Below are positions 1,362 to 21,946 of a DNA stretch of 36,241 nucleotides, piece by piece. The DNA comes from a virus. The stretch is taken from IMG/VR virus record IMGVR_UViG_3300036859_000504, positions 1 to 36,241 of that record. One strand, written 5' to 3'. The position numbers were made by a program, and so were the translations under genes. Within the stretch, counting starts at the first letter, position 1, and every line of letters begins with the position of its first letter. The notes below the pieces were generated by a model. The model was not told where the DNA came from, searched no databases, and was given only the letters and a program-made list of their open reading frames with translations.

Positions 1362-1776
1362 GCTCGAGCAGCCGTACACGCCCGACGAGGTCGCCGCGCT
1401 GCTGCGTGTCGAGCGATCGACGGTCATGGCCATGCAGCGCGACGGCCGACTGACGAAGGTGCCCGGGCTCCGGGTGGTGCGGATCACCCGCTCGAGCGTC
1501 GAGCGGATCCTGAAGGGGGAATACGATGGCGACGATGGGGAGGCACGGCGACGGAGGGATCACGAGGCGACCGGACGGCCGCCTGCAGGTCGCGATCACC
1601 CTGTCGTCGGGGAAGCGCCTGTACCGCTACGTCGCCCGGATGGACGATCGGGCGGCCCAGCGTCGGCTGGCCGACAAGGCACTCCGCGAGCTGCGCGAGG
1701 CCCGGCGCCTCGAGCTCGAGCCGGAACGGCAGACGCTCGAGGTCTACCTCCGCTCGTGGCTCGGGTCGCTCCGTGA
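1354..1776 (+). CDS. Excisionase-like helix-turn-helix protein
   Basis: GTG start inside the stop region of the upstream gene. Residues ~8-50 (YTPDEVAALLRVERSTV, MQRDGRLTKVPGLRVVRI) match the MerR/excisionase-type winged HTH found in Xis proteins and integrase partners. The gene sits directly before the integrase, the usual place of a recombination directionality factor. Only the first ~58 residues look like a real protein; the rest (Arg/Pro/Gly-rich) overlaps the integrase by about 250 bases in another frame, which is unusual. Either the natural stop was lost by mutation or the tail is non-functional. Role inferred: control of integration/excision or of integrase transcription. Confidence 0.6.
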   Translation: MAELEQPYTPDEVAALLRVERSTVMAMQRDGRLTKVPGLRVVRITRSSVERILKGEYDGDDGEARRRRDHEATGRPPAGRDHPVVGEAPVPLRRPDGRSGGPASAGRQGTPRAARGPAPRARAGTADARGLPPLVARVAP

Positions 1777-2463: not shown

Positions 2464-2717
2464 AGACGGTTGTCGAGCGCCGCCACTGGCGCGAGCGGCT
2501 GGGTCAGATGCTCGGCGAGTCCGTCATCGAGGTCGTGGACGTCATCGCCTTCGTCGCGATCCCTAGCCTCGAGTATCGGAGCAGCTGGGATGGCGAGCAG
2601 CGCGTCTCGAGCCCACGCGTCGCTGCGGTGGTGATCGGGCCCGACGGGCAGTACGACGCCGCGCCTCTGTCGGAGCTCCGCCGGGTCACCGCCCAGGAGC
2701 CGGAGTCGGCTCGATGA
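2460..2717 (+). CDS. Hypothetical small protein
   Basis: An 85-residue frame whose GTG start overlaps the integrase stop (GTGA). I do not recognise the family. It has an amphipathic N-terminus (VVERRHWRERLGQML), a hydrophobic strand (VIEVVDVIAFVAI) and a C-terminal part with VAAVVIGPDGQYDAAPL. No cysteines or membrane helix are evident. It ends just before the attachment site and may be cotranscribed with int. Confidence 0.5.
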   Translation: MKTVVERRHWRERLGQMLGESVIEVVDVIAFVAIPSLEYRSSWDGEQRVSSPRVAAVVIGPDGQYDAAPLSELRRVTAQEPESAR

Positions 2718-6531: not shown

Positions 6532-6863
6532 GCCTCGACGACCTCCGGGCCCTGTACCAGACGTCGCGTTGGCGCCGGGCCGCGCACGCCTTCCTTCGAC
6601 TGCACCCGGTCTGCATCCGCCCGGGCTGCGGCCAACGGGCGACGGTCGTCGACCACATCATCCCGCGGTCGACCGCCCGCGACGAGGCCGAGTTGCAGCG
6701 TCTGACCTGGGACCGATCGAACTGGCAGCAGATGTGCAAGCCGGACCACGACGCGAAGACCCGGCGAGAGAACGGCTGGGACAAGCCGAAGCGGCGGCCG
6801 CGGGTCGGCGTCCCGGCATCGGCCGTCGTGCGCCGCGACTACACCGCGAGGGCGGCCGTATGA
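6528..6863 (+). CDS. HNH endonuclease
   Basis: 111 residues. The zinc/HNH core is clear: CIRPGCGQRATVVDHIIPRS, then WDRSNWQQMCKPDHDAKT, with the Cys pairs and His-Asn-His residues in the right order. Such HNH proteins are encoded next to the large terminase in many siphophages, where they nick DNA and work with the terminase during packaging, often in cos phages. Start coupled to the upstream stop (ATGA) and stop coupled to the terminase ATG. Confidence 0.88.
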   Translation: MSLDDLRALYQTSRWRRAAHAFLRLHPVCIRPGCGQRATVVDHIIPRSTARDEAELQRLTWDRSNWQQMCKPDHDAKTRRENGWDKPKRRPRVGVPASAVVRRDYTARAAV

Positions 6864-8338
6864 CAGCTGCGGTCGCCCTCGCCACCCCGCGCACGCTCCG
6901 CGCGATGCCTCGCCGGCGCGGCAAGGTCGTCGGCTCCCCGACTCCTCGCCTCGGCCCGCCGCCGCCGCTGAAGCACGACCTCGCTGGCTTCCGCGGCATC
7001 TGCCGTGAGCTCGGCATCTCGCCGATTCCCTGGCAGGAGTGCGCCGCGACCTACCTCGAGGCCCAGCGTCCGGACGGCCGGCACCTGTACGGCGAGGTCC
7101 CGGTCATCGTCAGCCGACAGAACGGGAAGACGACGCTGCTGATCCCGCTGATCACGAAGCGCCTCCGCGCGGGCCGCCGGATCATGCACACCGCCCAGAA
7201 CCGGGAGCTGCCGCGCGAGGTCTTCGGCCAGGTCGCCGACATCATGGGCGACGGCGGGGAGCTGCTGAAGCGCCGCGGCCGCGTCGTCATGCCGCGGTTC
7301 GCGAACGGCCAGGAGGAGATCCGCCTCAGCAACGGCGGCGTGTACCGGATCGTCGCCCCGACTCGCGGCGGCGCCCGAGGTCCGTCGAACGACGACGTGA
7401 TCATCGACGAGGTCCGCGAGCTCGACAACTGGGAGTTCATCGGGGCGGCGAAGCCGACGACGACCGCGAGCCCGGACCCCCAGATCGTGTACCTGTCGAA
7501 CATGGGCGACGAGGAGAGCGTCGTCCTGACGGCGCTTCGCGATCGCGCCGGCGTGGATCCGCGGCTGGCGTACCTCGAATGGTCTGCCGATCCCGAGCTC
7601 GACGCCGGCGACCGGGCTGGCTGGCTGCAGGCGAACCCCGCGATCGGCCACATGCCGGGCGTCCTGGACACGCTCGTCGACGAGTACCGCGCCAACAAGC
7701 TCGGCGGCACGATGGCCATCTTCGAGATGGAGCACCTGTGCCGCTCGCAGAACACGCGGCGCGAGCTGCTGGTCAACCTCGGCCTGTGGAAGGGCCGCGA
7801 GGTCGACGACCTCGGCGCCCCGGCCCGGCCGGTCATGGCCGTGAGCATGGATCCGGGCGGCCGCCGGGCCTCGGCAGCGATCGCCTGGCGGAGGTCCGAG
7901 AAGTCGATCGCGATGCGCCTCGTGTACGACGTCACCGGTTCGCCGATCGACGTCGACACGCTCGGCCGCGACCTGCGCGCCGACGCCAAGCGCCTGGGCA
8001 TCACGCTGGTCGGCTTCAACCCGATGACCGACGCCCAGCTCGCGCGGTACTTCCTCCGCAAGGAGCCGATCAGCGGCATGAAGTGGGCGAACGGATCCGC
8101 CCGGTTCGTCGAGCTGATCACCGCCGGGCTGCTCGAGTGGCACGACGCCGAAGCAGTCACGACCGACCTGTCCTGGACGGCGCGCAAGGCGCACGAGGCG
8201 TCGGGCACCTTCGAGGCTGTCCGGGCCAGCGATGACCGGCCGATCACCGCGGCGAACGCGGCGATCGCCGCCGTGTGGCTCGCCTCCGAGCCTCGTCGAG
8301 CGGATCCCGCGCGGCAGCCCGGGACGATGGCCCTCTGA
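6860..8338 (+). CDS. terL: Terminase large subunit
   Basis: 492 residues. The ATPase half shows a Walker A-type motif SRQNGKTT (residues 85-92), Walker B VIIDE (180-184) and the coupling motif LSNMG (212-216). The nuclease half starts near Asp331 in VSMDPGGRRA and continues to EAVRASDDRPITAANAAIAAVWLA. This is the motor that packages DNA into the prohead and cuts it. The first ~35 residues are low-complexity and basic. The start overlaps the HNH stop (ATGA), and the portal ATG overlaps its stop. Confidence 0.95.
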   Translation: MTAAVALATPRTLRAMPRRRGKVVGSPTPRLGPPPPLKHDLAGFRGICRELGISPIPWQECAATYLEAQRPDGRHLYGEVPVIVSRQNGKTTLLIPLITKRLRAGRRIMHTAQNRELPREVFGQVADIMGDGGELLKRRGRVVMPRFANGQEEIRLSNGGVYRIVAPTRGGARGPSNDDVIIDEVRELDNWEFIGAAKPTTTASPDPQIVYLSNMGDEESVVLTALRDRAGVDPRLAYLEWSADPELDAGDRAGWLQANPAIGHMPGVLDTLVDEYRANKLGGTMAIFEMEHLCRSQNTRRELLVNLGLWKGREVDDLGAPARPVMAVSMDPGGRRASAAIAWRRSEKSIAMRLVYDVTGSPIDVDTLGRDLRADAKRLGITLVGFNPMTDAQLARYFLRKEPISGMKWANGSARFVELITAGLLEWHDAEAVTTDLSWTARKAHEASGTFEAVRASDDRPITAANAAIAAVWLASEPRRADPARQPGTMAL

Positions 8339-9912
8339 TGCCGACCCTCGACCTCCGCAAGCCGCTGCCCCTCACGCCCGAGTGGTGGCTCAAGCACCTG
8401 CTCGTGAAGCTGAAGACCCGCGCGCCGATGGCCCGCGAATACGACGAGTTCCACGAGGGCCAGCAGCGCCTGGCGTTCGCGTCCGACAAGTTCGCCCAGG
8501 TCTTCGGCCGTCGATATGCGCGGCTGCCGTCGAACTTCATGCCGCTCGTCGTGAACGCCGAGAAGGACCGGCTCGTCATCCAGGGCTTCCGGTTTGCGAA
8601 CCGGCAGGCGGGCGACAACACGGCCTGGTCGATCTGGCAGGAGAACCAGCTCGACGCGGAGAGCTTGATCGCCCACGAGATCGCGCTGGTCAAGGGCCAG
8701 GCGTTCGCGCTGGTCACGCCCCAGAACGGCAAGACGCCGCTGATCACGATCGAGGATCCGACCGAGGTCGTCGTCGAGGCGGCGTCGGGCAATCGCCGGC
8801 TGCGCCAGGCCGCGTTGAAGGTGTACCGCGACGACGACGACCGGATGCGGGCCTACCTGTACCTGCCCGACGAGATCTACCGCTTCCGCTCCGAGCGGCC
8901 GGTCAAGGGCGGGACGAACACCTGGGAGTCGATCAGCTGGGAGCCCTACGCCGAGGAGGGCGAGGAGTTCCCGATCAAGAACCCGCTCGGCGTCGTACCC
9001 GTGATCCCGCTGACGAACCGGCCGCGACGCGACGGATCCGGGCGCTCCGAGATCGCATCGATCATGGGCAACCAGAACGCGATCAACAAGCTTCGCTTCG
9101 ACGCCCTGGTCGCGTCCGAGTTCGTGGCGTTCCCACAGCGGTGGGCGACAAACATCGAGATCCCGACGGATCCCGACACCGGCAAGCCGATCGCGCCGTT
9201 CCGCCCAGGCGTCGACACCGTCTGGATTGCGCGCCGGCCGGACCCCGACGAGGCGGCCCAGTACGGCGACAAGTTCCCGTCCGCCGCGTTCGGCCAGTTC
9301 CCGGCGGCCGACCTTCGGCCCTACTTCTCGGCGATCGATTCCGAGCTCGGGCTCATGGTCGCTGCATCGGCGACGCCGTACTACTACCTCTTCGGATCCC
9401 CGTCCTCGGTGCCGCCGACCGGCGAGTCGATCAAGAGCTCCGAGGCGGCGCTCGTGAAGAAGGTCGCCGCCCAGGAGCTGCACTTCGGCGAGGGCTGGGA
9501 GGAGGTCATGCGGCTGTCGCTGATCGCCGTCAACCAGCAGACGAAGGCGAAGACCGACGGCGAGGCGATCTGGCAGGACGCGGAGACGCGCAACGAGGGC
9601 GCTCGCACCGATTCGGTCCTGAAGCAGTGGACGTCGGGCCTGCTGCCCGACGAGTTCGCCCTCGAGGAGCTGGGCTACAGCCCGCAGGCGATCGCCCGCA
9701 TCGCCGCGATGAAGGCCGCGGCCACGCCGCAGCGCGTCGACGCTGCCGGCGCCCTGGTCCGCGCCGGCTATGACCCGGCCGACGCGCTGCGCGCCGTGGG
9801 CCTCGATCCGATCAAGCACCTCGGCCTGCTGCCAGTCACGGTGCAGCCGGTCCGAACCCCAACCGTTGCCGCGACACCACCCGGTGCGATGTCCGCATCG
9901 GAGCCTGGTTGA
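8338..9912 (+). CDS. Portal protein (SPP1 gp6-like)
   Basis: 524 residues. Typical features of the SPP1-type portal family are visible: N-terminal EYDEFHEGQQRLAFAS, central PLTNRPRRDGSGRSEIAS, NQNAINKLRFDALVASEF, and a C-terminal stem/clip region with YYYLFGSPSSVPPTGESIK. A dodecamer at one capsid vertex forms the DNA channel and docks the terminase. Position right after terL and before the scaffold supports the call. The last ~40 residues are Pro/Thr/Val-rich. Confidence 0.92.
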   Translation: MPTLDLRKPLPLTPEWWLKHLLVKLKTRAPMAREYDEFHEGQQRLAFASDKFAQVFGRRYARLPSNFMPLVVNAEKDRLVIQGFRFANRQAGDNTAWSIWQENQLDAESLIAHEIALVKGQAFALVTPQNGKTPLITIEDPTEVVVEAASGNRRLRQAALKVYRDDDDRMRAYLYLPDEIYRFRSERPVKGGTNTWESISWEPYAEEGEEFPIKNPLGVVPVIPLTNRPRRDGSGRSEIASIMGNQNAINKLRFDALVASEFVAFPQRWATNIEIPTDPDTGKPIAPFRPGVDTVWIARRPDPDEAAQYGDKFPSAAFGQFPAADLRPYFSAIDSELGLMVAASATPYYYLFGSPSSVPPTGESIKSSEAALVKKVAAQELHFGEGWEEVMRLSLIAVNQQTKAKTDGEAIWQDAETRNEGARTDSVLKQWTSGLLPDEFALEELGYSPQAIARIAAMKAAATPQRVDAAGALVRAGYDPADALRAVGLDPIKHLGLLPVTVQPVRTPTVAATPPGAMSASEPG

Positions 9913-9931: not shown

Positions 9932-10543
9932 ATGGGAAATCAGTCCGCGGGCGCGATGCCCGTCGCGGGTGGCGCGACGCCACCCCAGACGCCGGCCCAG
10001 CCGGCAGCTCCGACAGCTCCGGCCACGCCGGCGGCGCCCGCGACGGGCGACCCCGAGGACCTGGGCGAGGGGGGCAAGCGAGCACTGAAGGCCGAGCGTG
10101 ACGCTCGATCCGCCGCCGAGCGCGAGCGGGACGAGTTCAAGACGCGGCTCGAGGAGCTCGAGAACTCGTCGAAGACCGAGCACGAGAGGGCAATCGCCCA
10201 GGCGAAGAAGGACGGCGCGACCGAGGTCCTCACGAGGGTCCAGGCGCAGGTCCGTCGGTCGGAGGTCAGGGCGGCGCTCTCAGCAGCCGGCGTGTCGAGC
10301 TCGATGCTCGACCTGGCGGCGAAGGCCGACGAGTTCGCGGAGCTCAAGGTGACCGACGAGGGTGTCGTGCAGGGACTGGATCAGGCGATCGCCGACCTCA
10401 AGAAGGCGCTGCCGGACCTGTTCAAGGCACAGCCCGCCGGCGGTGGCAAGGCACCGGACTTCGGCGGTGGTCCGCGAGGGACCCCGGCTGGCGCCGGCAC
10501 CGACCTGAACACGTTCATCCGACGCGCTGCGGGGCGCGCGTAG
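9932..10543 (+). CDS. Capsid scaffold-like protein
   Basis: 203 residues with a strong ribosome site (AGGGAGGT). Ala/Pro/Thr-rich N-terminus, then a long charged helix (LKAERDARSAAERERDEFKT, ELENSSKTEHERAIAQ), then a globular end and a Gly/Pro-rich tail. Size, coiled coil and position between portal and major capsid protein match phage scaffolding proteins. These occupy the prohead interior and leave before or during packaging. No protease is seen nearby. Confidence 0.8.
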   Translation: MGNQSAGAMPVAGGATPPQTPAQPAAPTAPATPAAPATGDPEDLGEGGKRALKAERDARSAAERERDEFKTRLEELENSSKTEHERAIAQAKKDGATEVLTRVQAQVRRSEVRAALSAAGVSSSMLDLAAKADEFAELKVTDEGVVQGLDQAIADLKKALPDLFKAQPAGGGKAPDFGGGPRGTPAGAGTDLNTFIRRAAGRA

Positions 10544-10570: not shown

Positions 10571-11524
10571 ATGGCCACGTACAACAGCCTGACCGACCGG
10601 ACGGACGCCGGTGCTCTGTCGACCGAGGAGGTCGCCTCGAGCATCATCGAGGGCCTGCCGGCGCAGTCGGCCGCGCTCCGCACCTTCCGGCGGGTCAACA
10701 TGTCCAAGGCCCAGCAGCGGATGCCGGTGCTGTCCGCGCTGCCAGTCGCCTACTGGGTGACCGGCGACACGGGCCTCAAGCAGAGCTCCGAGCTCGCCTG
10801 GGGCAACAAGTACCTCGACGTCCGCGAGCTCGCGGTCATCGTCCCGATCCCGATCAACGTGGTCGACGACAGTGACTTCGACATCGCCGGCGAGGCGGTC
10901 CCCCGCCTGATCGAGGCGTTCGGCGCCAAGCTCGACGCCGCGACGCTGATGAACGTCGACAACCCCTGGCCGGAGACGTACCAGAAGGGCATCGTCCGCC
11001 AGGCGTTCGACGCCGGCAACTACCACGTCGAGGGCACGTCGGCCGCGCCCCACGACGACTTCGCGGGCGACGTCAGCGACACGTTCGCGAAGGTCGAGGA
11101 GGACGGCTTCGACGTCAACATCGTCTACGCCCGCCGGAAGGTCCGGGCCCGGTTGCGGAACCTCCGCGACGACAACGGCAACCCGATCTACCAGCCCGTC
11201 GCCCAGGGCAACCCGGCGACGATCTACGGCGAGCAGCTCGAGTTCGTCCCGGGTGGCCCGTGGGTGAACAACTACGAGCTCGTGGCCGGCGATCGCAACG
11301 CGGCGATCCTCGGCGTCCGCAAGGACTTCGAGTTCCAGGTGTTCACCGAGGGCGTCATCAGCGACGACTCCGGCAACGTCGTGCTGAACCTGATGCAGCA
11401 GGACGCCATCGCGATACGCGCCACGGGCCGGTTCGCGTTCGCGGTCGCCAACCCGATCAACGCCGAGGGCGTGTCGGAGGGCAGCCGCTTCCCGTTCGCC
11501 GTCCTGGTCAACGCCGGCTCGTAA
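10571..11524 (+). CDS. Major capsid protein, HK97 fold
   Basis: 317 residues, ribosome site GAGGAG 5 bases before the ATG. The sequence reads as a Phage_capsid/HK97-type shell protein: MPVLSALPVAYWVTGDTG, KYLDVRELAVIVPIPINVVDDS (E-loop/P-domain strand), FGAKLDAATL, and a C-terminal A-domain ending IAIRATGRFAFAVANP. No cleavable N-terminal delta domain is evident, which fits a separate scaffold gene. Its strong start and spacing suggest high expression. Confidence 0.93.
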   Translation: MATYNSLTDRTDAGALSTEEVASSIIEGLPAQSAALRTFRRVNMSKAQQRMPVLSALPVAYWVTGDTGLKQSSELAWGNKYLDVRELAVIVPIPINVVDDSDFDIAGEAVPRLIEAFGAKLDAATLMNVDNPWPETYQKGIVRQAFDAGNYHVEGTSAAPHDDFAGDVSDTFAKVEEDGFDVNIVYARRKVRARLRNLRDDNGNPIYQPVAQGNPATIYGEQLEFVPGGPWVNNYELVAGDRNAAILGVRKDFEFQVFTEGVISDDSGNVVLNLMQQDAIAIRATGRFAFAVANPINAEGVSEGSRFPFAVLVNAGS

Positions 11525-11545: not shown

Positions 11546-12139
11546 GTGATCACCCTCGGGGAGGCCCGCGCACGGGGCATCCCGCTCCCGGCCGACGATG
11601 TTGTCGCGCAGGACATCATCGACGAGCAGAAGGCGTGGCTTGTCCGGAAGCTGCGCGGGCCCCTCGAGGGATCACGCACCGAAACCTTCCACGTCGGCTA
11701 CGGCAGGACGACCGGCAAGCTCGCCCTCGCCCGCTACACTGACGCGGTCACTGTCACCGACGGCGGATCCGCGCTGGCCGCCAGCCAGTTTCGCCTCGTC
11801 GACTCCGGCTCGGCGATCGAGCGCCTGGAAACGGGCTCGTCGCTGTGGTGGACCGGGCCCTACGTGGCCGTGCTCTACGCGCCGAACGACGAGGACGAGG
11901 TCCGCCGCGTGCTCTTCGACCTGGTCGCCCTGGCAGCCACGCCTGCGGAGGCCCATTCCTCCGAGCAGATCGGCGCCTACTCGTACTCCGGTGGCGGCGT
12001 GGCCACCCGTGCCGCGTCCCGGGCGGTCTTGGCCGCGAGCCTGATCCCGAAGCGCGATCCGCTCGTGTCGATGGTCGCGGTGAGCCGGCGGCTCGCGATC
12101 GAGGATCCCGTGATCAACCGGGCCGAGTCTGAGCTGTGA
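11546..12139 (+). CDS. Head-tail connector (adaptor) protein
   Basis: 197 residues, GTG start. Position directly after the major capsid protein and its make-up (an N-terminal helical part, a beta-rich middle with YTDAVTVTDGGSALAASQFRLVD, then a helix EDEVRRVLFDLVALAATP) fit head-tail adaptor proteins of the gp6/gp15 type, which sit under the portal. Sequence identity to a named family is weak by eye, so the role rests mostly on gene order. Confidence 0.65.
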   Translation: MITLGEARARGIPLPADDVVAQDIIDEQKAWLVRKLRGPLEGSRTETFHVGYGRTTGKLALARYTDAVTVTDGGSALAASQFRLVDSGSAIERLETGSSLWWTGPYVAVLYAPNDEDEVRRVLFDLVALAATPAEAHSSEQIGAYSYSGGGVATRAASRAVLAASLIPKRDPLVSMVAVSRRLAIEDPVINRAESEL

Positions 12140-12510
12140 GCTACGCGGGCCTGCTCGTCCACCCGCTCGCGATCGTCACGCCGGCCATCGCGGATCCGGA
12201 CGACGTCGACGGCTACGGGCAGCCGATCGCCGGCACGCCGACGACCGTGCTCGTGAACGGGATGGTTCAGCCGAAGACCGCGCGCGAGATCGCGCTGGCC
12301 AGCCAGGGCGGCACCGAGGTCGGCGACCACACGATCTTCCTGCTTCCCCGCAAGATCCACGCGGCAGCGTACATCCGCGACCAGCCCGACTCCGGCCGGC
12401 GCTTTGACATCGTCGGGATCCGGAGCTTCGAGTTCGGGTCGGTGCCCCACCTCGAGGTCGACTGCCGCCTCGTCGGCTCGACCGAGGGCCCGACGGTGCA
12501 CGGCTCGTGA
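12136..12510 (+). CDS. Head closure (stopper) protein
   Basis: 124 residues, GTG start overlapping the previous stop. Beta-rich, with GMVQPKTAREIALASQGGTE, DHTIFLLP and a C-terminal strand HLEVDCRLVG. This is the usual pattern and position of stopper/head-closure proteins (gp16 of SPP1, FII of lambda group) that seal the filled head and receive the tail. Confidence 0.65.
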   Translation: MSYAGLLVHPLAIVTPAIADPDDVDGYGQPIAGTPTTVLVNGMVQPKTAREIALASQGGTEVGDHTIFLLPRKIHAAAYIRDQPDSGRRFDIVGIRSFEFGSVPHLEVDCRLVGSTEGPTVHGS

Positions 12511-12665
12511 CCCGGCGGCGGCGCAGCTTGCTGCTCCGGCTCGTGGAGCGGCTGTACGTCTGGGCGCAGGAACGCGAGCGGCGGATCGATCGCCAGGCGA
12601 ATGCCGCGTGGTGGTCGCGGATGACGGAGCACTACCGCCGGGCTGATGCCGGGCGACTCGAGTAG
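12507..12665 (+). CDS. Small basic hypothetical protein
   Basis: 52 residues, GTG start overlapping the previous stop (GTGA). Arg/Trp-rich helix (LLLRLVERLYVWAQERERR, then QANAAWWSRMTEHYRRA). Not recognised. Coupled translation supports a real gene. It is the last gene before the glycosylation island. Confidence 0.5.
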   Translation: MTRRRRSLLLRLVERLYVWAQERERRIDRQANAAWWSRMTEHYRRADAGRLE

Positions 12666-12668: not shown

Positions 12669-13322
12669 GTGATCACGATCGTCCTGTGCAACGGCTCCGA
12701 GGACAAGTGGCAGGACCACCGCGGCGTCCGGCGCCACTTCGTCGAGATCGCCGGCGAACGCCTGATCGACCGGACCGTCCGCCAGTTCGGCAGCCGCGCC
12801 GACGTCGTCGTCTCGGGGCCTGACCTCCGGTACAAGGTCCCCGGCGCCGCCCTCTACGTGCCGCTCGACGAGCCTGACAACCTCGACGCCGACATCCTCC
12901 TGTCGACCCGGGCGCTGTGGTCGAGCCTCGACCGGACGCTCGTCGTGCTCGGTGACACATGGTTCAGCGACGCCGGGGTCGATGCGATCGTTGGCCTCGG
13001 CGACCACCGCTGGTTCTACGTGGGTCGCGAGCACGGCTCCCGCTTCTCGGGCACCGACTACGGCGAGATCTTCGCGCTCTCGTTCTGGCCCGAGCACCAG
13101 GCCGAGCTCCTCGCGGTGATGCTCGAGGTCCGTCGGCGGCAGCGCGACGAGGGCCTCTGGCGCGGCGGGCTGTGGGAGCACTACCGGATCCTGCGGGGCA
13201 TCGACCCGCTCGAGCACCGGATCGACGGCCACTTCCTCGAGGTCGACGACGAGACCGAAGACTTCGACTTCGGCCCGGCGTTCGAGACTTGGCTGCTCGC
13301 ACGCGAGGGGATGCCGGCGTGA
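12669..13322 (+). CDS. Nucleotidyltransferase-like protein (MobA/GlmU-type fold)
   Basis: 217 residues, GTG start 3 bases after the previous stop. The N-terminus (ITIVLCNGSEDKW) aligns by eye with the nucleotide-binding loop of sugar-nucleotidyltransferases, followed by HFVEIAGERLIDRTVRQ and a strand with a likely metal Asp (LVVLGDTWFSD). The usual loop lysine (GxPK) is replaced (GVRRHF), so the chemistry may differ. It probably makes or handles an activated sugar for the transferases downstream. Its stop overlaps the start of the tandem glycosyltransferase (GTGA). Confidence 0.65.
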   Translation: MITIVLCNGSEDKWQDHRGVRRHFVEIAGERLIDRTVRQFGSRADVVVSGPDLRYKVPGAALYVPLDEPDNLDADILLSTRALWSSLDRTLVVLGDTWFSDAGVDAIVGLGDHRWFYVGREHGSRFSGTDYGEIFALSFWPEHQAELLAVMLEVRRRQRDEGLWRGGLWEHYRILRGIDPLEHRIDGHFLEVDDETEDFDFGPAFETWLLAREGMPA

Positions 13323-14878
13323 CCGCGGTCTTCCTCGTCCCGCGCCGCAACGACAACGGGCACAGGGACCAGCTGTGGCAGTACGCCCGGGCTCGCTGGG
13401 AGCAGTACTTCCACGACGTCGCGGTCGTCGAGGGCCACCACGACGATGGGCCGTTCAACCGGGCGGCGGCGATCAACCGCGCGGCGCGCGCCGCCGGCGA
13501 GTGGGACGTCGGCATCATCATCGATTCGGACGTCCTGCTCTCGGTCAGCCAGGTCCGCGCCGCGATCGACAGTGCGACATCGACCGGCAAGGTCACGTGG
13601 GGCCACCGGCGCTGGCGGGGGATCCGTGAGGACGCGACGGTGCGCCTGGTCGCCGACCAGCGCGATCTTGGCGCGGAGCTGAACCGAGACGAGCTCGACC
13701 TGATCGTCGAGCGCACCAACCCACTGTCCTGGTCCTGCTGCATCGCGGTGCCTCGCCCGGTCTTCGACGACCTCGGTGGGCTCGACGAGCGGTTCAAGGG
13801 CTGGGGCTTCGAGGACATGGCGTTCCAGTCGGTGATTTGCGGGCTGTACGGCTACGAGCGGATCGAAGGCGACGTCGTCCACTTGTGGCACCCGAGGTCC
13901 GAGGAGCGGATCCTGAAGGGCGAGACGCGCGCGACGGCGACGCCGGAGTACGTGACGAACGCCCGCCTCGGCCGGCGCTACATGGTCGCCCTGCGCCGAG
14001 ACCATGCTCTCCACGATCGCGGCGACCAGCCGGCTTTGGAGGAGGAGCGGCAGCGCGACATCGACAACCTCCGGCGTGATGACGCCAAGTACGACGACGT
14101 CGCGCGCCGCCACGGCCTGCCCGATTGGACGAGCTGGTGGCCGACTCTCGAGGAGCTGCGTGACGGGGCGAAAGCCGTCGAGGCCGAGGCGGCGGCGAGC
14201 TCGGTCACAGTGGTCGTCACGACCGGCGGCGACGAGGCGAACTGGGCCGAGCGGTCCGACTACCTGCGGCGATCGCTCGAGTCGCTGAACGACCGGGTCA
14301 CGGGGCCGATCGTCCAGCGCGTCGTGTACTCGGACTGGGCGGGCCACGCCGAGGAGCTGGCTGCGATCGCCGAGGAGGAAGGCTTCTACGTGGTCGGCGG
14401 CGGTCACCACGGCTACACAGGGGCCAGGCGCCGGCTCTGGGCATACCTGGCGAAGCGGGCCCGGGGCACGTTCATCTTCGCGGCCGAGGATGACTTCACG
14501 TACGACCGCGACGTCGACCTGGCGCCGATGATCGAGACGCTTGAGGCACGGCCCGAGCTCCGCCAGCTGGCGCTCCTGCGCGGCCCGTACTACCCGCGCG
14601 AGCTCGAGGCAGGCGGCGTGCTGCAGTCGCTGGCCACGCCGCACGAGCTGGTCAACCACAGGGCGCACCCGTTCGTCACGCACCGCGACCACTTCACGGC
14701 CAACCCGTCGCTCTTCCGGCGATCGCTGACGAGCGTCGAGTGGCCGAACGCGGCGAGCTCGGAGCGCGTCTTCGGCGACGTGGTCCTTCGGGATCCGTCC
14801 GCCCGCTTCGCGTACTGGGGCGCTGGCGAGCCGTGGGTCAGCCACGTCGGGGCGGTCCGCGCCGGGACCAGCTACTGA
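13319..14878 (+). CDS. Two-domain glycosyltransferase (GT-A + GT-A-like)
   Basis: 519 residues. Domain 1 (~1-195): GT-A fold with the metal motif DSD (residues 69-71, IIIDSDVLL) and the galactosyltransferase-type motif LDERFKGWGFEDM (acceptor/catalytic Asp/Glu, 155-167), followed by VVHLWHP (His188), as in GT7 C-terminal-type enzymes. A helical linker follows (~200-290). Domain 2 (~295-519) restarts as a GT-A-like fold: SVTVVVTTGGDEANW, then TFIFAAEDDFTY with EDD (390-392) in the DxD position. Expected role: adding two sugars, or polymerising, on a virion or cell-surface acceptor. No membrane helix, so cytoplasmic. Tightly coupled to both neighbours. Confidence 0.8.
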   Translation: MTAVFLVPRRNDNGHRDQLWQYARARWEQYFHDVAVVEGHHDDGPFNRAAAINRAARAAGEWDVGIIIDSDVLLSVSQVRAAIDSATSTGKVTWGHRRWRGIREDATVRLVADQRDLGAELNRDELDLIVERTNPLSWSCCIAVPRPVFDDLGGLDERFKGWGFEDMAFQSVICGLYGYERIEGDVVHLWHPRSEERILKGETRATATPEYVTNARLGRRYMVALRRDHALHDRGDQPALEEERQRDIDNLRRDDAKYDDVARRHGLPDWTSWWPTLEELRDGAKAVEAEAAASSVTVVVTTGGDEANWAERSDYLRRSLESLNDRVTGPIVQRVVYSDWAGHAEELAAIAEEEGFYVVGGGHHGYTGARRRLWAYLAKRARGTFIFAAEDDFTYDRDVDLAPMIETLEARPELRQLALLRGPYYPRELEAGGVLQSLATPHELVNHRAHPFVTHRDHFTANPSLFRRSLTSVEWPNAASSERVFGDVVLRDPSARFAYWGAGEPWVSHVGAVRAGTSY

Positions 14879-15114
14879 TGTCGGTCATCGTCAAGGGCGG
14901 CCTCGCCCGCTACCGCGCCGTCCAGCGTGACGGCGACCGATCGTGGCTCATGGAGTGCCCAGGCTGTGGGACATGGGCGAACCTCGACAACGACCAGTGG
15001 CTCGGGCTCGTCTCGGTCGACCATGCTGCTGACGGCTGCACCGGCGGCTACCACGAGACGCACAACTACGCGGCGGACCTCGAGGCCCACATCGACGAGG
15101 CCCAAACGAGCTGA
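14878..15114 (+). CDS. Small zinc-binding protein in glycosylation island
   Basis: 78 residues, ATG overlapping the upstream stop (TGATG). It has a CPGCG knuckle (residues ~26-30), then VDHAADGC and GGYHETHNY, giving Cys/His ligands for one zinc. No enzyme family is recognised. Its place between two glycosyltransferases suggests an accessory role, but this is only context. Confidence 0.6.
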   Translation: MSVIVKGGLARYRAVQRDGDRSWLMECPGCGTWANLDNDQWLGLVSVDHAADGCTGGYHETHNYAADLEAHIDEAQTS

Positions 15115-15116
15115 CC

Positions 15117-16169
15117 GTGGACGCGATCGCCTGCGAGCGGCAGTTCATCGATCATGCGGCCCCGGTCTGGCGTCTCCTCCCGCCACGGCACCGGGGCCGC
15201 TTCCTGACCGACGCCTCCCTGGTCGAGCACGCTCGCGGCCGCGGCATCGAGGCCGAGGCGATCGACACTGGCGCGCTGCGCCGGAGCTCGTTGCCGCCGA
15301 CGGCGAATCCAGGTCCCGGGCCCGCCGCGTTCGTCGTCTCGATCGGCGACACGAAGGTCGCCCGCCGCCTGGGCTACCGCCGGTTCGCGTTCATGGAGCA
15401 CGGCGCCGGCCAGGCGTACATCGGCGATCGCGATGCCGTCGCCCAGCGCCACCCGTCCTACGCCGGTGGCGTCGACCGTGAGGACGTCGAGCTCTTCCTG
15501 GTGCCGAACCAGTACAGCGCCGGCCTGTGGCGGCGGGCGTACCCGGAGGCCCGCGTCGACGTCGTCGGCAGCCCGAAGCTCGAGGACCTGTACCAACTGG
15601 TCGCCGAGCGGGTGGAAAGCGACCGGCCCGTCGTGGCGATCTCTTTCCACTGGCCTGCGTTCACCTGCGAAGAGGCGGGATCCGCGCTGGGGCATTACCT
15701 GAAGATGCTGCCGGCGCTTGTTGCCGCTTACCAGGTCATCGGCCACGCTCACCCGAAGGGTGACTGGCCTGCCCGCGTCGCCCGGCATTACCGCCGGGCC
15801 GGCATCCCGTTCGTCGAGGACTTCGCCGACGTCGTTCGCCAGGCCGACGTCTACGTGTGCGACAACAGCTCGACGATCTTCGAGTTCGCGGCCACCGGCC
15901 GGCCGGTCGTCGTGCTGAACAAGCCCGAGTACCGGCGCGACGTGAGCCACGGCGGGCGCTTCTGGGACTGGGCGACGGTCGGGATCCAGGTCGATCAGCC
16001 CGACGCGCTCGTGCCGGCGATCGCCCGGGCGCTCGAGGATCCGCCGGCGATCCGCGCCGAGCGGGAGCGCGTGCTCGAGCTCGTCTATCCGGTGCGACAT
16101 GGCGCCGGCGAGCGCGCGGCCGCGGCGATCGCGGACTGGTTGACGCAACCGGCGACGGTGGCCGCCTGA
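15117..16169 (+). CDS. GT-B glycosyl/glycerophosphotransferase-like (TagF-type)
   Basis: 350 residues, GTG start. The C-terminal half carries the donor-site pattern of CDP-glycerol glycerophosphotransferases: HAHPKGDW, then DVYVCDNSSTIFEFAATGRPV and LNKPEYRR. The N-terminal half has AFMEHGAGQAYIGD, matching the HG motif near the acceptor site. Members add glycerol-phosphate or sugars to wall polymers or, in phages, possibly to virion proteins. No membrane anchor. It ends the island, its stop overlapping the tail-terminator ATG. Confidence 0.78.
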   Translation: MDAIACERQFIDHAAPVWRLLPPRHRGRFLTDASLVEHARGRGIEAEAIDTGALRRSSLPPTANPGPGPAAFVVSIGDTKVARRLGYRRFAFMEHGAGQAYIGDRDAVAQRHPSYAGGVDREDVELFLVPNQYSAGLWRRAYPEARVDVVGSPKLEDLYQLVAERVESDRPVVAISFHWPAFTCEEAGSALGHYLKMLPALVAAYQVIGHAHPKGDWPARVARHYRRAGIPFVEDFADVVRQADVYVCDNSSTIFEFAATGRPVVVLNKPEYRRDVSHGGRFWDWATVGIQVDQPDALVPAIARALEDPPAIRAERERVLELVYPVRHGAGERAAAAIADWLTQPATVAA

Positions 16170-16597
16170 TGGTCGATCCGACTGGCGCCCTGATCGTCGA
16201 GCTGCGCAACGCCAACATCGCGGGCAAGCGCGTGCGCGGTGGCGAGCCGGCACCGAAGGCGAACGGCTACGAGGGCGACGCGCTCGGGCCCGGGTATTAC
16301 AAGCGGTTCGTCGTCGTGTCCAGGCTCGGCTACGACCGCCTGCACCGCGCGCCGGTCGCGTTCCATCGCATCGCCGTCCGAGCCTACGGCGCGACGTTCG
16401 AGGACGCGGCCGCGCTGATGGGCGAGATCTCTGACCTGCTCGACAACGCCGGCCCGCGGCTGACGGCGTCGGGCGTCGCGATCCACCAGTCGCTTGACGT
16501 ATCCGGCGGTAATGCGCAACGGGATCCGGACACGGGTCAGCCATACGAAGCGGGTGTGATCGAGCTCATCGCGGGGACCCAGGTCGTCGCGGTCTAG
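16169..16597 (+). CDS. Tail terminator/completion protein
   Basis: 142 residues. The alpha/beta pattern (DPTGALIVELRN, FHRIAVRAYGATFEDAAALMGEISDLLDN, then a C-terminal strand YEAGVIELIAGTQVV) matches tail-terminator proteins (gp17 of SPP1, gpU group). These cap the tail tube and join it to the head. In ordinary siphophages this gene follows the head-closure gene directly; here 3.5 kb of glycosylation genes lie between them. Confidence 0.7.
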   Translation: MVDPTGALIVELRNANIAGKRVRGGEPAPKANGYEGDALGPGYYKRFVVVSRLGYDRLHRAPVAFHRIAVRAYGATFEDAAALMGEISDLLDNAGPRLTASGVAIHQSLDVSGGNAQRDPDTGQPYEAGVIELIAGTQVVAV

Positions 16598-17421: not shown

Positions 17422-17964
17422 ATGCCCACCGGAAACGGCATCACAGCGGACACCCCGGTCAACCTCGTCGTCGGCGCCGGCGTACTCCTCCGGGCGCACG
17501 CCTACTTCGGGGCGTCGATCGACAACAACCTCTTCGCGGTCGATCGCGAGATGTTCACGCCGGACCTCAACGGGATCATGGCCGATCTCATGGGGACCGA
17601 CTACATCACGCGCTCGGTCGGCCGCATCGAGGCGACGATCCCCGAGGTCGGCGCGAACGTCATCGCGGCCGGCATCCCGGGCGCGACCGTCGACACGTCG
17701 ACGCCCGGCCAGACCCTCATCAGCGAAGCCACGGCCCGGCGCATCCCCGATGCGTCGTACGCCGACTGGGAGCTGGACATCGACCGCCTCAACGGCGGCC
17801 AGTTCCAGTTCGAGGTCGACAACGCGATCAACACCGCGGCGTTCGAGGGCGAGCTGCAGGACGACGGCCTGTTCGCCCCGCGCTACGTGCTCGCCGGGCG
17901 CATCGATCCCGATGCCCTGTCGACCTCGCCCTGGCGGATCCGGATCCTCGACACGGCGTCGTGA
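17422..17964 (+). CDS. Major tail tube protein
   Basis: 180 residues with ribosome site AGGAG (17411-17415). Beta-rich sequence with VNLVVGAGVLLRAHAYFG, RSVGRIEATIPEVGANVIA, FQFEVDNAINTAAFEG and WRIRILDTAS. Size and position before the frameshifting chaperone genes and the tape measure identify the tube subunit that stacks in rings around the tape measure. Well-spaced strong start agrees with high expression. Confidence 0.78.
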   Translation: MPTGNGITADTPVNLVVGAGVLLRAHAYFGASIDNNLFAVDREMFTPDLNGIMADLMGTDYITRSVGRIEATIPEVGANVIAAGIPGATVDTSTPGQTLISEATARRIPDASYADWELDIDRLNGGQFQFEVDNAINTAAFEGELQDDGLFAPRYVLAGRIDPDALSTSPWRIRILDTAS

Positions 17965-18773
17965 TCGCGGACCCGCTCGTCGCCGTCCTGGCGCTGGCCC
18001 TGGGCCTCCTCGTGGGGCTATGGGCCGGCGCCGGGCTCGGCCTCCGTCTCGCAGCCCGCCGGCGCGCCGCGCTCGGCGCCCATGCCCAGCTGGCGCGCCT
18101 CTGGCCGGCCGAGCTCCCCGGTCGGTCGGCGGCCGACATCCTGGCCGGCGTGGTGCGCGTGTCGCTGGGCGGGACGGCCTACGAGCTGCCGGTCCTACCG
18201 CGCGCCGCGTCGCGCGCCTGGCTCGAGCAGCTGGACGCGCGGTTCGCCGAGCTGGCCAGGGACCTCGAGAAGGCCGGCAACGACGCCCCGGTCATCATGT
18301 CCCGCCTGGTCAGTGAGGCCGACGCCCTCTACGACATGCTCCTGTCCTACGACGAGCACCGCGTGCTGCCGTCGCGCGATGACATCGACGCGATCGCCAC
18401 GGACACCGAGATCCTCCGTGCGGTGCTCGAGGTCTGGCGGGCCGTGAACCCTTTAGCCGCCACCGTGGCCGAGGCGAGCGTCCTGACGCCGACGCCCTCT
18501 CCCGAGCCGCGGACTTCGCCGCCAGCGTCTACGGCTGGGGTCCAGCCTTCATCGAGCGCGACCTCACCGACGAGCAGCTCGTCTGGTACTTCGACGCCGC
18601 CCAGGACCGCCTCGAGCGCACCACGCACGCGGAGTTCGAGCGGCTCGTCGGAGCGGTCCGGCTCGGCACCATCTTCGCCCACGACTCGCGCCAGCACTCG
18701 CGCTGGCGCTCGCGCTCGCGCGGCGCGAAGCCCGCTCGCCCCCTCTCCGGCGCCGAGCTCGAGGCTGCCGTGA
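17961..18773 (+). CDS. Tail assembly chaperone, unshifted product (gpG-like)
   Basis: 270 residues in the zero frame; GTG start overlapping the tail tube stop. Residues 1-165 look like a protein: a hydrophobic N-terminal helix (LVAVLALALGLLVGLWAGAG), then AHAQLARLWPAELPG and DMLLSYDEHRVLPSR. After the slip site at 18449-18455 the zero frame turns into a Ser/Pro/Thr/Arg-rich tail without normal composition, the signature of reading over a sequence selected in another frame. Known gpG/gpGT pairs bind the tape measure during tail assembly. A hydrophobic start is unusual for this family. A start downstream of the helix is possible. Confidence 0.65.
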   Translation: MIADPLVAVLALALGLLVGLWAGAGLGLRLAARRRAALGAHAQLARLWPAELPGRSAADILAGVVRVSLGGTAYELPVLPRAASRAWLEQLDARFAELARDLEKAGNDAPVIMSRLVSEADALYDMLLSYDEHRVLPSRDDIDAIATDTEILRAVLEVWRAVNPLAATVAEASVLTPTPSPEPRTSPPASTAGVQPSSSATSPTSSSSGTSTPPRTASSAPRTRSSSGSSERSGSAPSSPTTRASTRAGARARAARSPLAPSPAPSSRLP

Positions 18774-18823
18774 TGCGGGTCGCGCAGCTGTTCCCGGGCA
18801 ACGTCATCGCGGCGGCCGCCTGA
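17961..18823 (+). CDS. Tail assembly chaperone, -1 frameshift product (gpGT-like)
   Basis: Predicted fusion of zero-frame codons 17961-18455 (165 residues) with the -1 frame from 18455 to the TGA at 18821-18823 (122 residues), 287 in all. The -1 segment has normal protein composition: DALSRAADFAASVYGW, AFIERDLTDEQLVWYFDAAQD, LERTTHAEFERLV and AELEAAVMRVAQLFPGN. It ends one base before the next gene's ATG, as expected for the real downstream part. By analogy with lambda gpGT, the T part would recruit the tail tube protein. Confidence 0.8.
18449..18455 (+). promoter_or_regulatory. -1 ribosomal slippery heptamer CCCTTTA
   Basis: Read in frame as C-CCT-TTA it fits X XXY YYZ exactly. TTA is a rare codon in this G+C-rich genome, so its presence here is telling. 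Frame quality switches at this point from the zero frame to the -1 frame, and the site lies between tail tube and tape measure, where siphophages have their programmed frameshift. Confidence 0.82.
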
Positions 18824-18824: not shown

Positions 18825-19328
18825 ATGGCCGCACGCCAGTCGCGCGTCGTGCTCAACCGCGCCGCCCTCAACGAGATCGACGGCGGCCTGGCGGATGGCG
18901 TCTTCGACATCGCCCGCGCGATCGCCGTCGTGGCTGCCTCGCGGGCGCCGGACGCGCCACCCTACGGCGAGGGGCTCGTCGACGCCGGTGGCGCTGCCAT
19001 CTGGGTCCGCGGCCGGAAGGTCGCCGAATCCACCACGGGCCCGGGCGGCAAGGTCGACAAGCCGCGCGGCCTGACGCTGAAGAGCGCCGGCGCGACGATC
19101 GTCGGCGTCGTCGGGTTCGGCTTCCCCGCCCTCTTTGTCGAGCTCGGCACGATCCTGATGCGGGCCATTCCGTTCCTCACGCCGGCGGCGATCGAGGTCA
19201 TCGGCAACCAGGCGCAGCTCCTCCTCTCGAAGGCGATGGCGCGCCGGCTCCGCGGTGAACGATCGGCGAACACGGCACGGATCCAGGAGAGGATCGCAGC
19301 GAGCCGGGCACGGCAGGCCGCGGCATGA
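18825..19328 (+). CDS. HK97 gp10-like tail/neck protein
   Basis: 167 residues. A segment near the end (FVELGTILMRAIPFLTPAA) is the hallmark of the HK97 gp10-like family (normally FxEFGT...PFLRPA). The N-terminal helix contains ALNEIDGGLADGVFDIARAIA. Members usually lie before the tail terminator and act at the head-tail joint; here the gene lies between the tail chaperones and the tape measure, an uncommon order. Its stop overlaps the tape-measure ATG. Confidence 0.7.
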   Translation: MAARQSRVVLNRAALNEIDGGLADGVFDIARAIAVVAASRAPDAPPYGEGLVDAGGAAIWVRGRKVAESTTGPGGKVDKPRGLTLKSAGATIVGVVGFGFPALFVELGTILMRAIPFLTPAAIEVIGNQAQLLLSKAMARRLRGERSANTARIQERIAASRARQAAA

Positions 19329-21946
19329 ACATCGGGTCGGTATTCCTGACCCTGCTCGCCGATGGGTCGAAGCTCGCACCACAGGTCCAGCAGGAGGCCG
19401 CCAAGGCCGGCGACGCCGGCGCGAAGACGCTCGGCCAGCGGCTGTCGGGGGGCCTCAAGGGCGAGGCGTTCAAGGTCCTCGGCGGTGTCGCGTCCGCGGC
19501 GTTCGGGCTGATGACGAAGGGCGCCCTCGAGCTCGAGAACGTGCAGGCGCGGATCCGCGCCGAGACGAGCGCGACGGCCGACGAGGCGGCGGCTGCGGCG
19601 AAAGTCGTGAACAAGGTCGCCGGCGACGAGCGCATGTCGCTCGAGGCGGTCAGCGACATCGCGATCAGGGTGCGGCGCGACATCGGTGCGATCGGCCCAG
19701 AGGCGGACAAGCTGACAGCGAAGATCGCGAAGTTCGCGCGCGTCACCCGCCAGGAGGGCGGTGCCGCGGTCGCCGACATCGACGACCTGATGGATGCGTG
19801 GGGCCTGACCGTCGACGATCTCGATGGGCTCCTGGACAAGCTCGTCGTCTCGGGCAAGAAGTTCGGCGGCACCATCACGGCGGACCAGAAGGCCCTCGCG
19901 GCCATGGCGCCGCAGCTGAAGGCGTTCAACCTCAACATCGACGACGGCATCGCCCTCCTGGACCTGTTCAAGGCATCGGGCCTCGACGCTGCAGGCATCC
20001 CGCGGGCCCTCAACAGCGCGATCCAGAAGCTCGACGGCCGGCCGCTGCAGGACTTCATCGCCGAGCTCGCGGCGATCGAGGATCCGGGCGAGCGGGCGCG
20101 GCGAGCGATCGAGGTCTTCGGCGCCCGCGCCGGCGCGCAGCTGGCGAACGCGATCAAGCCGGGCATGGATTCGCTCGAGGACTTCAAGATCAGCACCGAG
20201 GAGGCGGCGGGCGCGGTCGATGCGGCGGCCGACGTCCTCGATAGCACCTGGTCCGGCCGGCTCTCGAAGTTCTTCAGCCAGGTCGGTGCCGCGGCCCGCG
20301 GCTTCGGTGCCGATCTCGGCGCCGCCACGACGGCGCTGGCGAGCCTCGGCACCCTCCTCGCGACCATGGGTGGTGGAAAGCTCCTGAAGGGCCTCGCGGC
20401 CGTCACCCTGAAGCCCCTGGCGGGCCTGGGGGTCCGGATCGCGACTTTCATCGCCACCGAGCTCGCCACGAGCACCGTTGCCTCGCGGCTCAGCGACGGC
20501 CTGGCGTCGGGCTTCAGCAAGGTTCCTGGCTCTTCGGCGATGAAGAGCGGGATCAACAGGCTGGGCGCGGCGCTCGGCTCGCCGCTCGGGAAGGCGATCG
20601 GCCTCGCGGCGGCGATCGCGTTCGTGGTCTGGTTCGCCGACGAGCTCAACAAGCGCAAGGACGAGGTCGCAGCCCAGGCGAAGACCATTGGCGATTCGGT
20701 CGGCGAGCAGATCAAGAACGGCACCGACGCCCAGCTCGAGCAGTCCCTCGCGGCCCTCAGAGAGGGCATGGCCGCGATCGAGGCCGCCACGAAGCGCGGT
20801 CCGATCCAGATGGCGACACCCGAGCAGATCGACGCCCTGAAGGCCCTTGTCGAGCAGTACAACATCGTCCAGGAGGAGCTGAACCGGCGCGCGGCGATCA
20901 ACGCCGGCGTGGCCGAATCACAGCTGCGGGGCGCGAAGAGCGGCGTCGCCAGCGCCGCGGCCGAGCTGGCGATGGAGATTCCCAACGGCTTCACTCGCAA
21001 CCAGGCGGCCGCGGCGGGGCGGATGCAGGCCTTCCTCGACATGACCATCGGCCAACGGCTAGTGGCCATGGGCCCCGTCGTTCTTCGACGTGCGGCGGAG
21101 CTCGCGCTCGGCATCGCCTCGGGCCTGCGCGATCGTCGATCGGCGATCGACGCCGCGATGGACCAGCTGCGCGAGGACATCAAGAACAGGCTCACGCCGT
21201 CGAAGGAGGTCGCGCACGACATCGGCCTCTTGTTCAGCAAGACCCTCGCCCGCGGCCTGAAGGACGCGGACCCGGTGATCAAGGCCCAGGCCGAGGGAAC
21301 GCGGGCGCTGATCGAGGCGCAGCTGATCGAGACGATCAAGGCCGGCGGCGAAGCCGGGAAGAAGATCCAGGAGGAGCTCGAGGCGAAGCTGAAGTCGAAG
21401 GACCCCGCGGTCAAGGCCCAGGCGGAGCGGACGAAGAGCCTCGTCGATGCCGCGCTGAAGGCCCAGCCGGCGAAGACGCCGGGCGAGGTCATCGGCGACC
21501 AGCTGAACGCCGATCTGAAGGACAAGGGGACGACGCTCGGGAGGACCGCGTACGACCTCGGCCGGACGATCGCGAAGAACCTGATGGCCGGCGTGAAGGG
21601 CACGGGCTACGTGGCACCGTCTCCCTCGCCCACCGGCCGGCATTACAGCGGGCCGCAGGAGTTTCATAAGGGTACGTGGGGCGTTCAGGGCGACCAGCTG
21701 GCGTTCGTCCACGACCGCGAGATCATCGTGCCCGAAGCCGAATCGGAGGCCATCCGCGCCGGCACGGCAACCCTCGGCGCGGTCCCGACCGGGCCGATCA
21801 TCGGCTCGCTCAGCCTCAGCGTCGACGCACGTGGCAACCCGAACCCCGATGCCACAGGCGCCGCGGTCAAGCAGGGCGTCGCCGACGCCATGGCCGACGT
21901 CTTCCGCGACCAGTCCCTGCGCGGCCTGACGGGGACGCGACCATGA
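19325..21946 (+). CDS. Tape measure protein
   Basis: 873 residues, the largest gene here. N-terminal region LTLLADGSKLAPQVQQEAAK and the PhageMin_Tail-type core (ELENVQARIRAETSATADEA to LNIDDGIALLDLFKASGLDA) are typical. A hydrophobic stretch near the middle (LGKAIGLAAAIAFVVWFADEL) would cross the membrane during DNA ejection. Long helical repeats follow (e.g. two related segments AGKKIQEELEAKLKSKDPAVK and ARGLKDADPVIKAQAEG). Tail length scales with residue number, so a tail of roughly 130 nm is expected by the usual ~0.15 nm per residue rule. Confidence 0.93.
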   Translation: MNIGSVFLTLLADGSKLAPQVQQEAAKAGDAGAKTLGQRLSGGLKGEAFKVLGGVASAAFGLMTKGALELENVQARIRAETSATADEAAAAAKVVNKVAGDERMSLEAVSDIAIRVRRDIGAIGPEADKLTAKIAKFARVTRQEGGAAVADIDDLMDAWGLTVDDLDGLLDKLVVSGKKFGGTITADQKALAAMAPQLKAFNLNIDDGIALLDLFKASGLDAAGIPRALNSAIQKLDGRPLQDFIAELAAIEDPGERARRAIEVFGARAGAQLANAIKPGMDSLEDFKISTEEAAGAVDAAADVLDSTWSGRLSKFFSQVGAAARGFGADLGAATTALASLGTLLATMGGGKLLKGLAAVTLKPLAGLGVRIATFIATELATSTVASRLSDGLASGFSKVPGSSAMKSGINRLGAALGSPLGKAIGLAAAIAFVVWFADELNKRKDEVAAQAKTIGDSVGEQIKNGTDAQLEQSLAALREGMAAIEAATKRGPIQMATPEQIDALKALVEQYNIVQEELNRRAAINAGVAESQLRGAKSGVASAAAELAMEIPNGFTRNQAAAAGRMQAFLDMTIGQRLVAMGPVVLRRAAELALGIASGLRDRRSAIDAAMDQLREDIKNRLTPSKEVAHDIGLLFSKTLARGLKDADPVIKAQAEGTRALIEAQLIETIKAGGEAGKKIQEELEAKLKSKDPAVKAQAERTKSLVDAALKAQPAKTPGEVIGDQLNADLKDKGTTLGRTAYDLGRTIAKNLMAGVKGTGYVAPSPSPTGRHYSGPQEFHKGTWGVQGDQLAFVHDREIIVPEAESEAIRAGTATLGAVPTGPIIGSLSLSVDARGNPNPDATGAAVKQGVADAMADVFRDQSLRGLTGTRP

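What the first reader, a model, noticed from the sequence alone, without database searches (positions are those of the whole stretch)
12669..16169. Glycosylation island inserted between head-closure and tail-terminator genes
Four coupled genes (nucleotidyltransferase-like, two-domain GT-A protein, zinc miniprotein, TagF-like GT-B) sit inside the virion operon where siphophages normally have none. They would be made together with capsid and tail proteins. Glycosylated virions are known in some mycobacteriophages. This set looks like a self-contained system that activates a sugar, adds two residues and then a glycerol-phosphate or further sugar.
Basis: partly seen in the sequence, partly recalled or inferred. 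Interest (0 to 1): 0.8.

Follow-up and report, generated by a model that had tools for sequence, protein, structure and literature searches.

The report
Glycan-transfer gene island inside virion operon
An uncultured soil phage carries, spliced into the genes that build its head and tail, a small set of sugar-transfer enzymes related to ones known to coat some mycobacteriophages with sugar, and the same enzyme pair recurs in the same kind of place in dozens of unrelated phages, so the phage most likely decorates its own particles.

Summary
The four genes are real, overlapping or nearly so, and sit exactly between a head-closure and a tail-terminator gene. B (13319-14878) is a two-domain GT-A protein; its first domain is homologous to Che8 gp109 and Catdawg gp35, glycosyltransferases of mycobacteriophage virion-glycosylation loci, its second to Bread gp238. 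D (15117-16169) is a GT-B protein of the Glyphos_transf superfamily, absent from PHROGs, found in at least 163 viral contigs; in 56 of 65 non-redundant loci core virion genes lie within 8 genes, on both sides in 33, in several unrelated head-gene contexts. B and D are the conserved core; the slots around them swap between relatives (nucleotidyltransferase A here; TagD-like, GT2, pyruvyltransferase, methyltransferase or fibre genes elsewhere). A is a MobA/IspD-like nucleotidyltransferase of unproven substrate; C has no homologue. Virion glycosylation is the best reading (about 0.7). The 'self-contained, activates a sugar, then glycerol-phosphate' pathway is only partly supported: D scores equally against TagF and UDP-GlcNAc 2-epimerase. 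Precedent: Cluster O phages carry glycosyltransferases between portal and protease genes. New variant of a known kind.

The parts
12136..12510 (+). Upstream flank: head-closure (Hc1) gene
   Evidence: phrog_501 E 0.0046 and phrog_763 E 0.0072; conserved in the relatives
12507..12665 (+). 52-aa micro-ORF linking Hc1 to A
   Evidence: overlaps the Hc1 stop (GTGA); 49% identical over 43 aa to L014:3412-3540 at the same place
12669..13322 (+). A: MobA/IspD-like nucleotidyltransferase (substrate unknown)
   Evidence: phrog_33187 9e-31; family profile against PDB: CTP:inositol-1-P cytidylyltransferase 6e-9, LicC 1e-5; relatives hit NTP_transf_3 up to 6e-11
13319..14878 (+). B: two-domain GT-A glycosyltransferase (about residues 1-230: beta4GalT/GT7C-like with DSD and GWGFED motifs; about 290-519: second GT-A with EDDF)
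   Evidence: domain homologues Che8 gp109, Catdawg gp35, Bread gp239 (first) and Bread gp238 (second)
14878..15114 (+). C: 78-aa CxxC miniprotein, possibly metal-binding, not conserved
   Evidence: no Pfam hit; NF041591 E 0.0067 below cut-off; no tblastn hit in the fetched loci
15117..16169 (+). D: GT-B transferase of the Glyphos_transf/epimerase superfamily
   Evidence: PF04464 hit in 14 of 14 aligned family members; AlphaFold2 model pLDDT 89.5, GT-B fold; virion-operon location across 65 loci
16169..16597 (+). Downstream flank: tail-terminator gene, start overlaps the D stop
   Evidence: phrog_123 E 3.5e-6
10571..11524 (+). Major capsid protein, candidate acceptor
   Evidence: phrog_10 6e-43; acceptor role inferred from Cluster O and Che8 precedent
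17422..17964 (+). Major tail protein, candidate acceptor
   Evidence: phrog_885 4e-12; acceptor role inferred

Best explanation
The island is a virion-glycosylation module made as part of the late structural operon. B carries two GT-A transferase domains; the most likely course is that one puts the first sugar on an exposed residue (probably Ser/Thr) of a capsid or tail-tube protein and the other extends it, and D (GT-B) adds a further residue. A probably makes or supplements the nucleotide-activated donor for one step; C is accessory. Sugar phosphates come from the host. Shown here: the genes, their coupling, B's homology to enzymes of known virion-glycosylation loci, and the recurrent placement of B and D among virion genes. 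Inferred: acceptor protein, sugar identity, order of addition, the role of A.
For: B's first domain matches Catdawg gp35 and Che8 gp109 (5.7e-19 and 9.8e-18 at Z=1e5) and its second matches Bread gp238. Cluster O phages carry gp35-type genes between portal and protease, and such enzymes are reported to modify capsid and tail-tube proteins (PMC11600133, PMC12363180, both citing Freeman 2023). D: 65 loci non-redundant at 90% identity, core virion genes on both sides in 33, on one side in 23 (many contigs end there), 61 of 65 with another glycan-type gene within 6 genes; 121 of 128 neighbouring genes on the same strand, 88 of those 121 overlapping or abutting, median gap -4. The head genes differ between these loci (several portal and capsid families), so the placement recurs. 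Close relatives keep B and D between Hc1 and tail terminator at 53-74% identity. Some islands also hold fibre genes.
Against: No virion of this phage exists to test. No acceptor motif was found. The annotated phage collection holds no close whole-island relative. A homologues are often far from virion genes (20 of 57 loci near them, none flanked on both sides). A in the window lacks the family's usual lysine.
Confidence: 0.7

Rival explanations
1. The enzymes modify the host cell surface late in infection (for example to stop released phages adsorbing to debris or to exclude superinfection), using wall glycopolymers as acceptor; D would be a true TagF-like wall transferase.
For: D passes the Glyphos_transf cut-off. 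TagD-like, rhamnosyltransferase-like, pyruvyltransferase and PseB-like genes in related islands are typical of surface-polymer loci.
Against: Genes are embedded in and coupled to virion genes rather than standing apart; no membrane-anchored or lipid-carrier enzyme is in the island; B's homologues belong to virion-glycosylation loci.
Confidence: 0.15
2. The island makes a phosphodiester-linked alcohol (teichoic-acid-like) decoration: A, or TagD-like enzymes in relatives, makes a CDP-alcohol and D transfers the alcohol phosphate onto a sugar laid down by B. (A chemical variant of the best explanation, not exclusive of it.)
For: All 14 aligned D proteins hit Glyphos_transf. TagD-like genes whose best PDB match is B. 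subtilis TagD (1e-23) sit in related islands. The A family's best PDB matches are CTP:inositol-1-P cytidylyltransferases, with LicC also found. A is fused to a LicD domain in L205. A lies beside D in a Chloroflexi MAG contig.
Against: Profile comparison gives D-TagF E 2.5e-4 and D-epimerase 1.3e-4, no discrimination. Foldseek ranks UDP-GlcNAc 2-epimerases first. TagD-like genes are present in only 9 of 65 D loci and mostly go with GT2 (7 of 9).
Confidence: 0.2
3. The island glycosylates phage DNA bases.
For: Some phage glycosyltransferases do this in other phages (own knowledge).
Against: No search linked B or D to DNA glucosyltransferases; B's relatives are virion-glycosylation enzymes.
Confidence: 0.02

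Closest known systems
Cluster O mycobacteriophage (Corndog/Catdawg) O-methyltransferase plus three glycosyltransferase block
   Same: Glycosyltransferase genes inside the virion operon, overlapping each other; B first domain homologous to Catdawg gp35; reported to modify capsid and tail-tube proteins (PMC11600133)
   Different: Located portal-protease there, head closure-tail terminator here; no D-type GT-B and no A-type nucleotidyltransferase; B is one fused protein here
Mycobacteriophage Che8 gp108-gp110 glycosylation locus
   Same: B first domain homologous to gp109; three adjacent glycosyltransferase genes
   Different: At the far right end of the genome, not among head-tail genes; lacks A and D
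Cluster C mycobacteriophage glycosyltransferase pair (Bread gp238/gp239)
   Same: The two proteins are homologues of B's second and first domains
   Different: Separate genes in reverse order, in a 154-kb genome, outside the head-tail gene block
TagF/TarL CDP-glycerol or CDP-ribitol polymerases (PF04464, PDB 3l7i, 8va1)
   Same: Same GT-B superfamily, above the Pfam cut-off; PNxYSA, HxHP and DNSS regions align with TagF
   Different: About 11-14% identity by structure; epimerases fit equally well; donor untested
CTP:inositol-1-P cytidylyltransferase, LicC and IspD (MobA-like NTP transferases)
   Same: A family N-terminal half aligns with them
   Different: Window copy has RR in place of PK; substrate and activity unknown

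Membership tests
Phage virion-glycosylation locus (Che8/Corndog type) | Glycosyltransferases homologous to those of the characterised loci | tested here: met
   B first domain vs Che8 gp109 and Catdawg gp35
Phage virion-glycosylation locus (Che8/Corndog type) | Genes in or next to the virion operon | tested here: met
   Between Hc1 and tail terminator, overlapping
Phage virion-glycosylation locus (Che8/Corndog type) | Glycan covalently on capsid or tail-tube protein | not testable with these tools
   No virions exist; needs mass spectrometry
PF04464 Glyphos_transf / TagF | Score above the curated cut-off | tested here: met
   26.4 vs 22.1 bits for the window; a hit in 14 of 14 members at E up to 0.1
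PF04464 Glyphos_transf / TagF | Closer to TagF than to other GT-B families | tested here: not met
   hhalign E 2.5e-4 to TagF vs 1.3e-4 to epimerase; Foldseek ranks epimerases first
PF04464 Glyphos_transf / TagF | Uses CDP-glycerol or CDP-ribitol | not testable with these tools
   Enzyme assay needed
MobA-like NTP transferase (IspD/LicC clan) | Family-level profile match | tested here: met
   Relatives hit NTP_transf_3 up to 6e-11; A7 profile vs PDB 6e-9
MobA-like NTP transferase (IspD/LicC clan) | Lys of the PK motif in the window copy | tested here: not met
   GVRRHF against GVPKHL in most of the family
MobA-like NTP transferase (IspD/LicC clan) | Predicted fold | tested here: inconclusive
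   AlphaFold2 pLDDT 40.6
beta4GalT/GT7C-like GT-A (B first domain) | DXD-like and GWGxED motifs | tested here: met
   D69/D71 and GWG-ED invariant or nearly so in A2; PF02709 E 0.0015, below its cut-off

The most novel reading that the evidence does not exclude
A widespread, undescribed class of phage islands, built round the D family, decorates virions with short teichoic-acid-like glycans: phage-encoded cytidylyltransferases (A or TagD-like) make CDP-alcohols and D transfers the alcohol phosphate onto a sugar that B attaches to capsid or tail protein.
Probability: 0.2. Interest if true: 0.85.

Novelty: new variant of a known kind. Interest (0 to 1): 0.55.

Why it matters
Virion glycosylation has been shown in only a few mycobacteriophages. 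Here genes of the same type, with an additional GT-B family (D) that PHROGs v4 does not contain, sit among virion genes in many unrelated environmental phages, including contigs of Solirubrobacteraceae, Chloroflexi and Coriobacteriia MAGs. If D and B act on virion proteins, glycan-coated virions are common outside mycobacteria, and the swapping side enzymes (methyl, pyruvyl, cytidylyl, dehydratase) suggest that the coat diversifies quickly. That makes the question of what virion glycans do for a phage in its own environment testable.

Tried and rejected
Structure prediction of A failed (pLDDT 40.6), so its class rests on profiles. phmmer and profile search of D against PDB sequences found nothing meaningful. 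A first D-epimerase hhalign was invalid because unrelated ORFs were in the set; repeated with filtered sequences. Myrna gp234/gp238 and Che8 gp108/gp110 showed no profile match to B, D or A. A recent insertion was looked for by GC and not seen. A strict empty site was sought: L335 (capsid 58% identical) has the compact order without the island, but its downstream genes are not homologous to the window's, so it is a mosaic, not a clean empty site. Freeman 2023 itself is not in the library and is cited through other papers. Corndog records were not found by accession; Catdawg was used instead. Viral-structure search of D gave only generic GT-B matches, among them a Bacillus phage SP-15 CDP-glycerol glycerophosphotransferase at rank 13. 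DNA modification was considered and rejected.

Full report
Observation. The window is a 36,241-base virus record of about 70% GC. Genes in order: terminase 6860-8338, portal 8338-9912, scaffold-like 9932-10543, major capsid 10571-11524, adaptor-like 11546-12139, head closure 12136-12510, the island, tail terminator 16169-16597, major tail 17422-17964, tail chaperone, neck protein 18825-19328, tape measure 19325-21946, tail proteins, and a tail-spike-like protein 24681-26252. They overlap or nearly abut. A conserved 52-aa micro-ORF (12507-12665) closes the apparent gap between head closure and A. No sigma-70-like promoter or terminator was found across the region, and GC does not change.

What the proteins are. 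B is two GT-A domains. The first has DSD and GWGFED motifs and weak matches to beta-1,4-galactosyltransferase and chondroitin synthase. Profiles of the two domains match mycobacteriophage glycosyltransferases: first domain, Bread gp239, Catdawg gp35 and Che8 gp109; second domain, Bread gp238. In a Solirubrobacteraceae MAG contig the two domains are separate genes beside D, so B is a fusion of two enzymes. D is a GT-B protein. All 14 aligned family members hit Glyphos_transf and the model is confident (pLDDT 89.5). However, Foldseek puts UDP-GlcNAc 2-epimerases first and TagF/TarL from rank 27, and profile comparison does not separate the two. D has no PHROG match. A belongs to the MobA/IspD-like nucleotidyltransferases: a 32-sequence profile gives PDB matches to CTP:inositol-1-phosphate cytidylyltransferase (6e-9) and LicC (1e-5). 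The window copy reads RR where most of the family has PK. C is a 78-aa CxxC protein with no homologue among the loci examined.

Relatives of the whole island. Close relatives (capsid protein 59-87% identical) carry B and D between head closure and tail terminator or, on shorter contigs, as far as the contig reaches. None of the close relatives checked carries A there. Its place holds a GT2 protein (L016; L004, after fibre genes), GT2 plus a TagD-like cytidylyltransferase (L006, L014, L009, L035), GT2 plus a methyltransferase (L003), or a polysaccharide pyruvyltransferase (L015). The TagD-like profile matches B. subtilis TagD at 1e-23, but the sequences score below the NCBIfam equivalog cut-off, so 'TagD-like' is as far as it goes. 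Several islands hold fibre or collar-like genes (L014, L004, L040). More distant relatives by capsid protein (about 43-52% identity) mostly have the compact head-tail order without these enzymes.

D across phages. D relatives were confirmed in 163 viral contigs, of which the best 80 were kept. After removing 90%-identical copies, 65 loci remain. Core virion genes lie within 8 genes on both sides in 33 and on one side in 23; 9 showed none by my profiles, of which L030 is annotated with capsid and tail genes around D. D sits between portal and capsid, capsid and adaptor, or head closure and tail terminator, with unrelated head-gene families. 61 of 65 have another glycan-type gene within 6 genes. 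Nearby enzymes include B-type GT-A, rhamnosyltransferase-like, methyltransferases, pyruvyltransferase and a PseB-like dehydratase. In contrast A relatives are near core virion genes in 20 of 57 loci and flanked on both sides in none. Caveats: genes were called with my own codon-usage script, family labels are profile hits at 1e-5, and the loci extend only about 7 kb each side, which favours finding neighbours.

Function. Enzymes of virion-glycosylation kinship placed inside and coupled to virion genes, repeatedly and in different head contexts, are best explained by action on virion proteins. Cluster O phages are the direct precedent: the O-methyltransferase and glycosyltransferases between portal and protease were described with the suggestion of capsid modification (PMC4351075), and later papers state that such enzymes modify capsid and tail-tube proteins (PMC11600133, PMC12363180). 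The sugar, acceptor and order of addition are inferences.

The glycerol-phosphate question. For it: Glyphos_transf hits, TagD-like genes in some islands, A's cytidylyltransferase-leaning matches, an A protein fused to LicD in L205, and A next to D in a Chloroflexi MAG. Against it: D fits epimerases equally well, and TagD-like genes go with GT2 rather than with D as such. I give it about 0.2.

Other fusions. In L164, L166 and L167, A is fused to a GT-A domain with a GWGQ(E/D)D motif like that of B's first domain, which links nucleotidyl transfer with this glycosyltransferase type.

Verdict. Observation confirmed; interpretation partly supported; new variant of a known kind; interest 0.55.

Noticed in passing
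window 17961-18823: Tail assembly chaperone: codon bias moves from frame 0 to frame -1 at about 18450-18500 and the -1 frame stays open to 18823, as expected for the programmed frameshift of siphophage chaperones; the Ser/Pro/Thr-rich end of the frame-0 ORF is probably not made.
   Followed up: partly
window 26784-27971 (- strand): A polytopic-looking membrane protein of up to 395 aa on the opposite strand after the tail genes, no Pfam or PHROG match; it looks like a GT-C-type membrane glycosyltransferase and could be a host-surface gene.
   Followed up: partly
window 18825-19328: The neck/tail-completion gene lies before the tape measure gene here, whereas in relatives its homologue is between D and the tail terminator: a local rearrangement.
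   Followed up: no
window 1526-2717: Integrase N-terminal domain in 1526-2113 followed by two further short ORFs: a possibly broken or split integrase.
   Followed up: no
L205:5142-7721: One 859-aa protein with LicD, A-type nucleotidyltransferase and rhamnosyltransferase-like domains, next to a TagD-like gene.
   Followed up: partly
L164:1084-2814, L166:2633-4393, L167:6992-8332: A-type nucleotidyltransferase fused to a GT-A domain with a GWGQ(E/D)D motif.
   Followed up: partly
L014:6896-7918, L040:11100-12344: Fibre genes (tail-fibre/collar-like; collagen repeats with Gp10_C) inside or beside the glycan islands, possible acceptors.
   Followed up: partly
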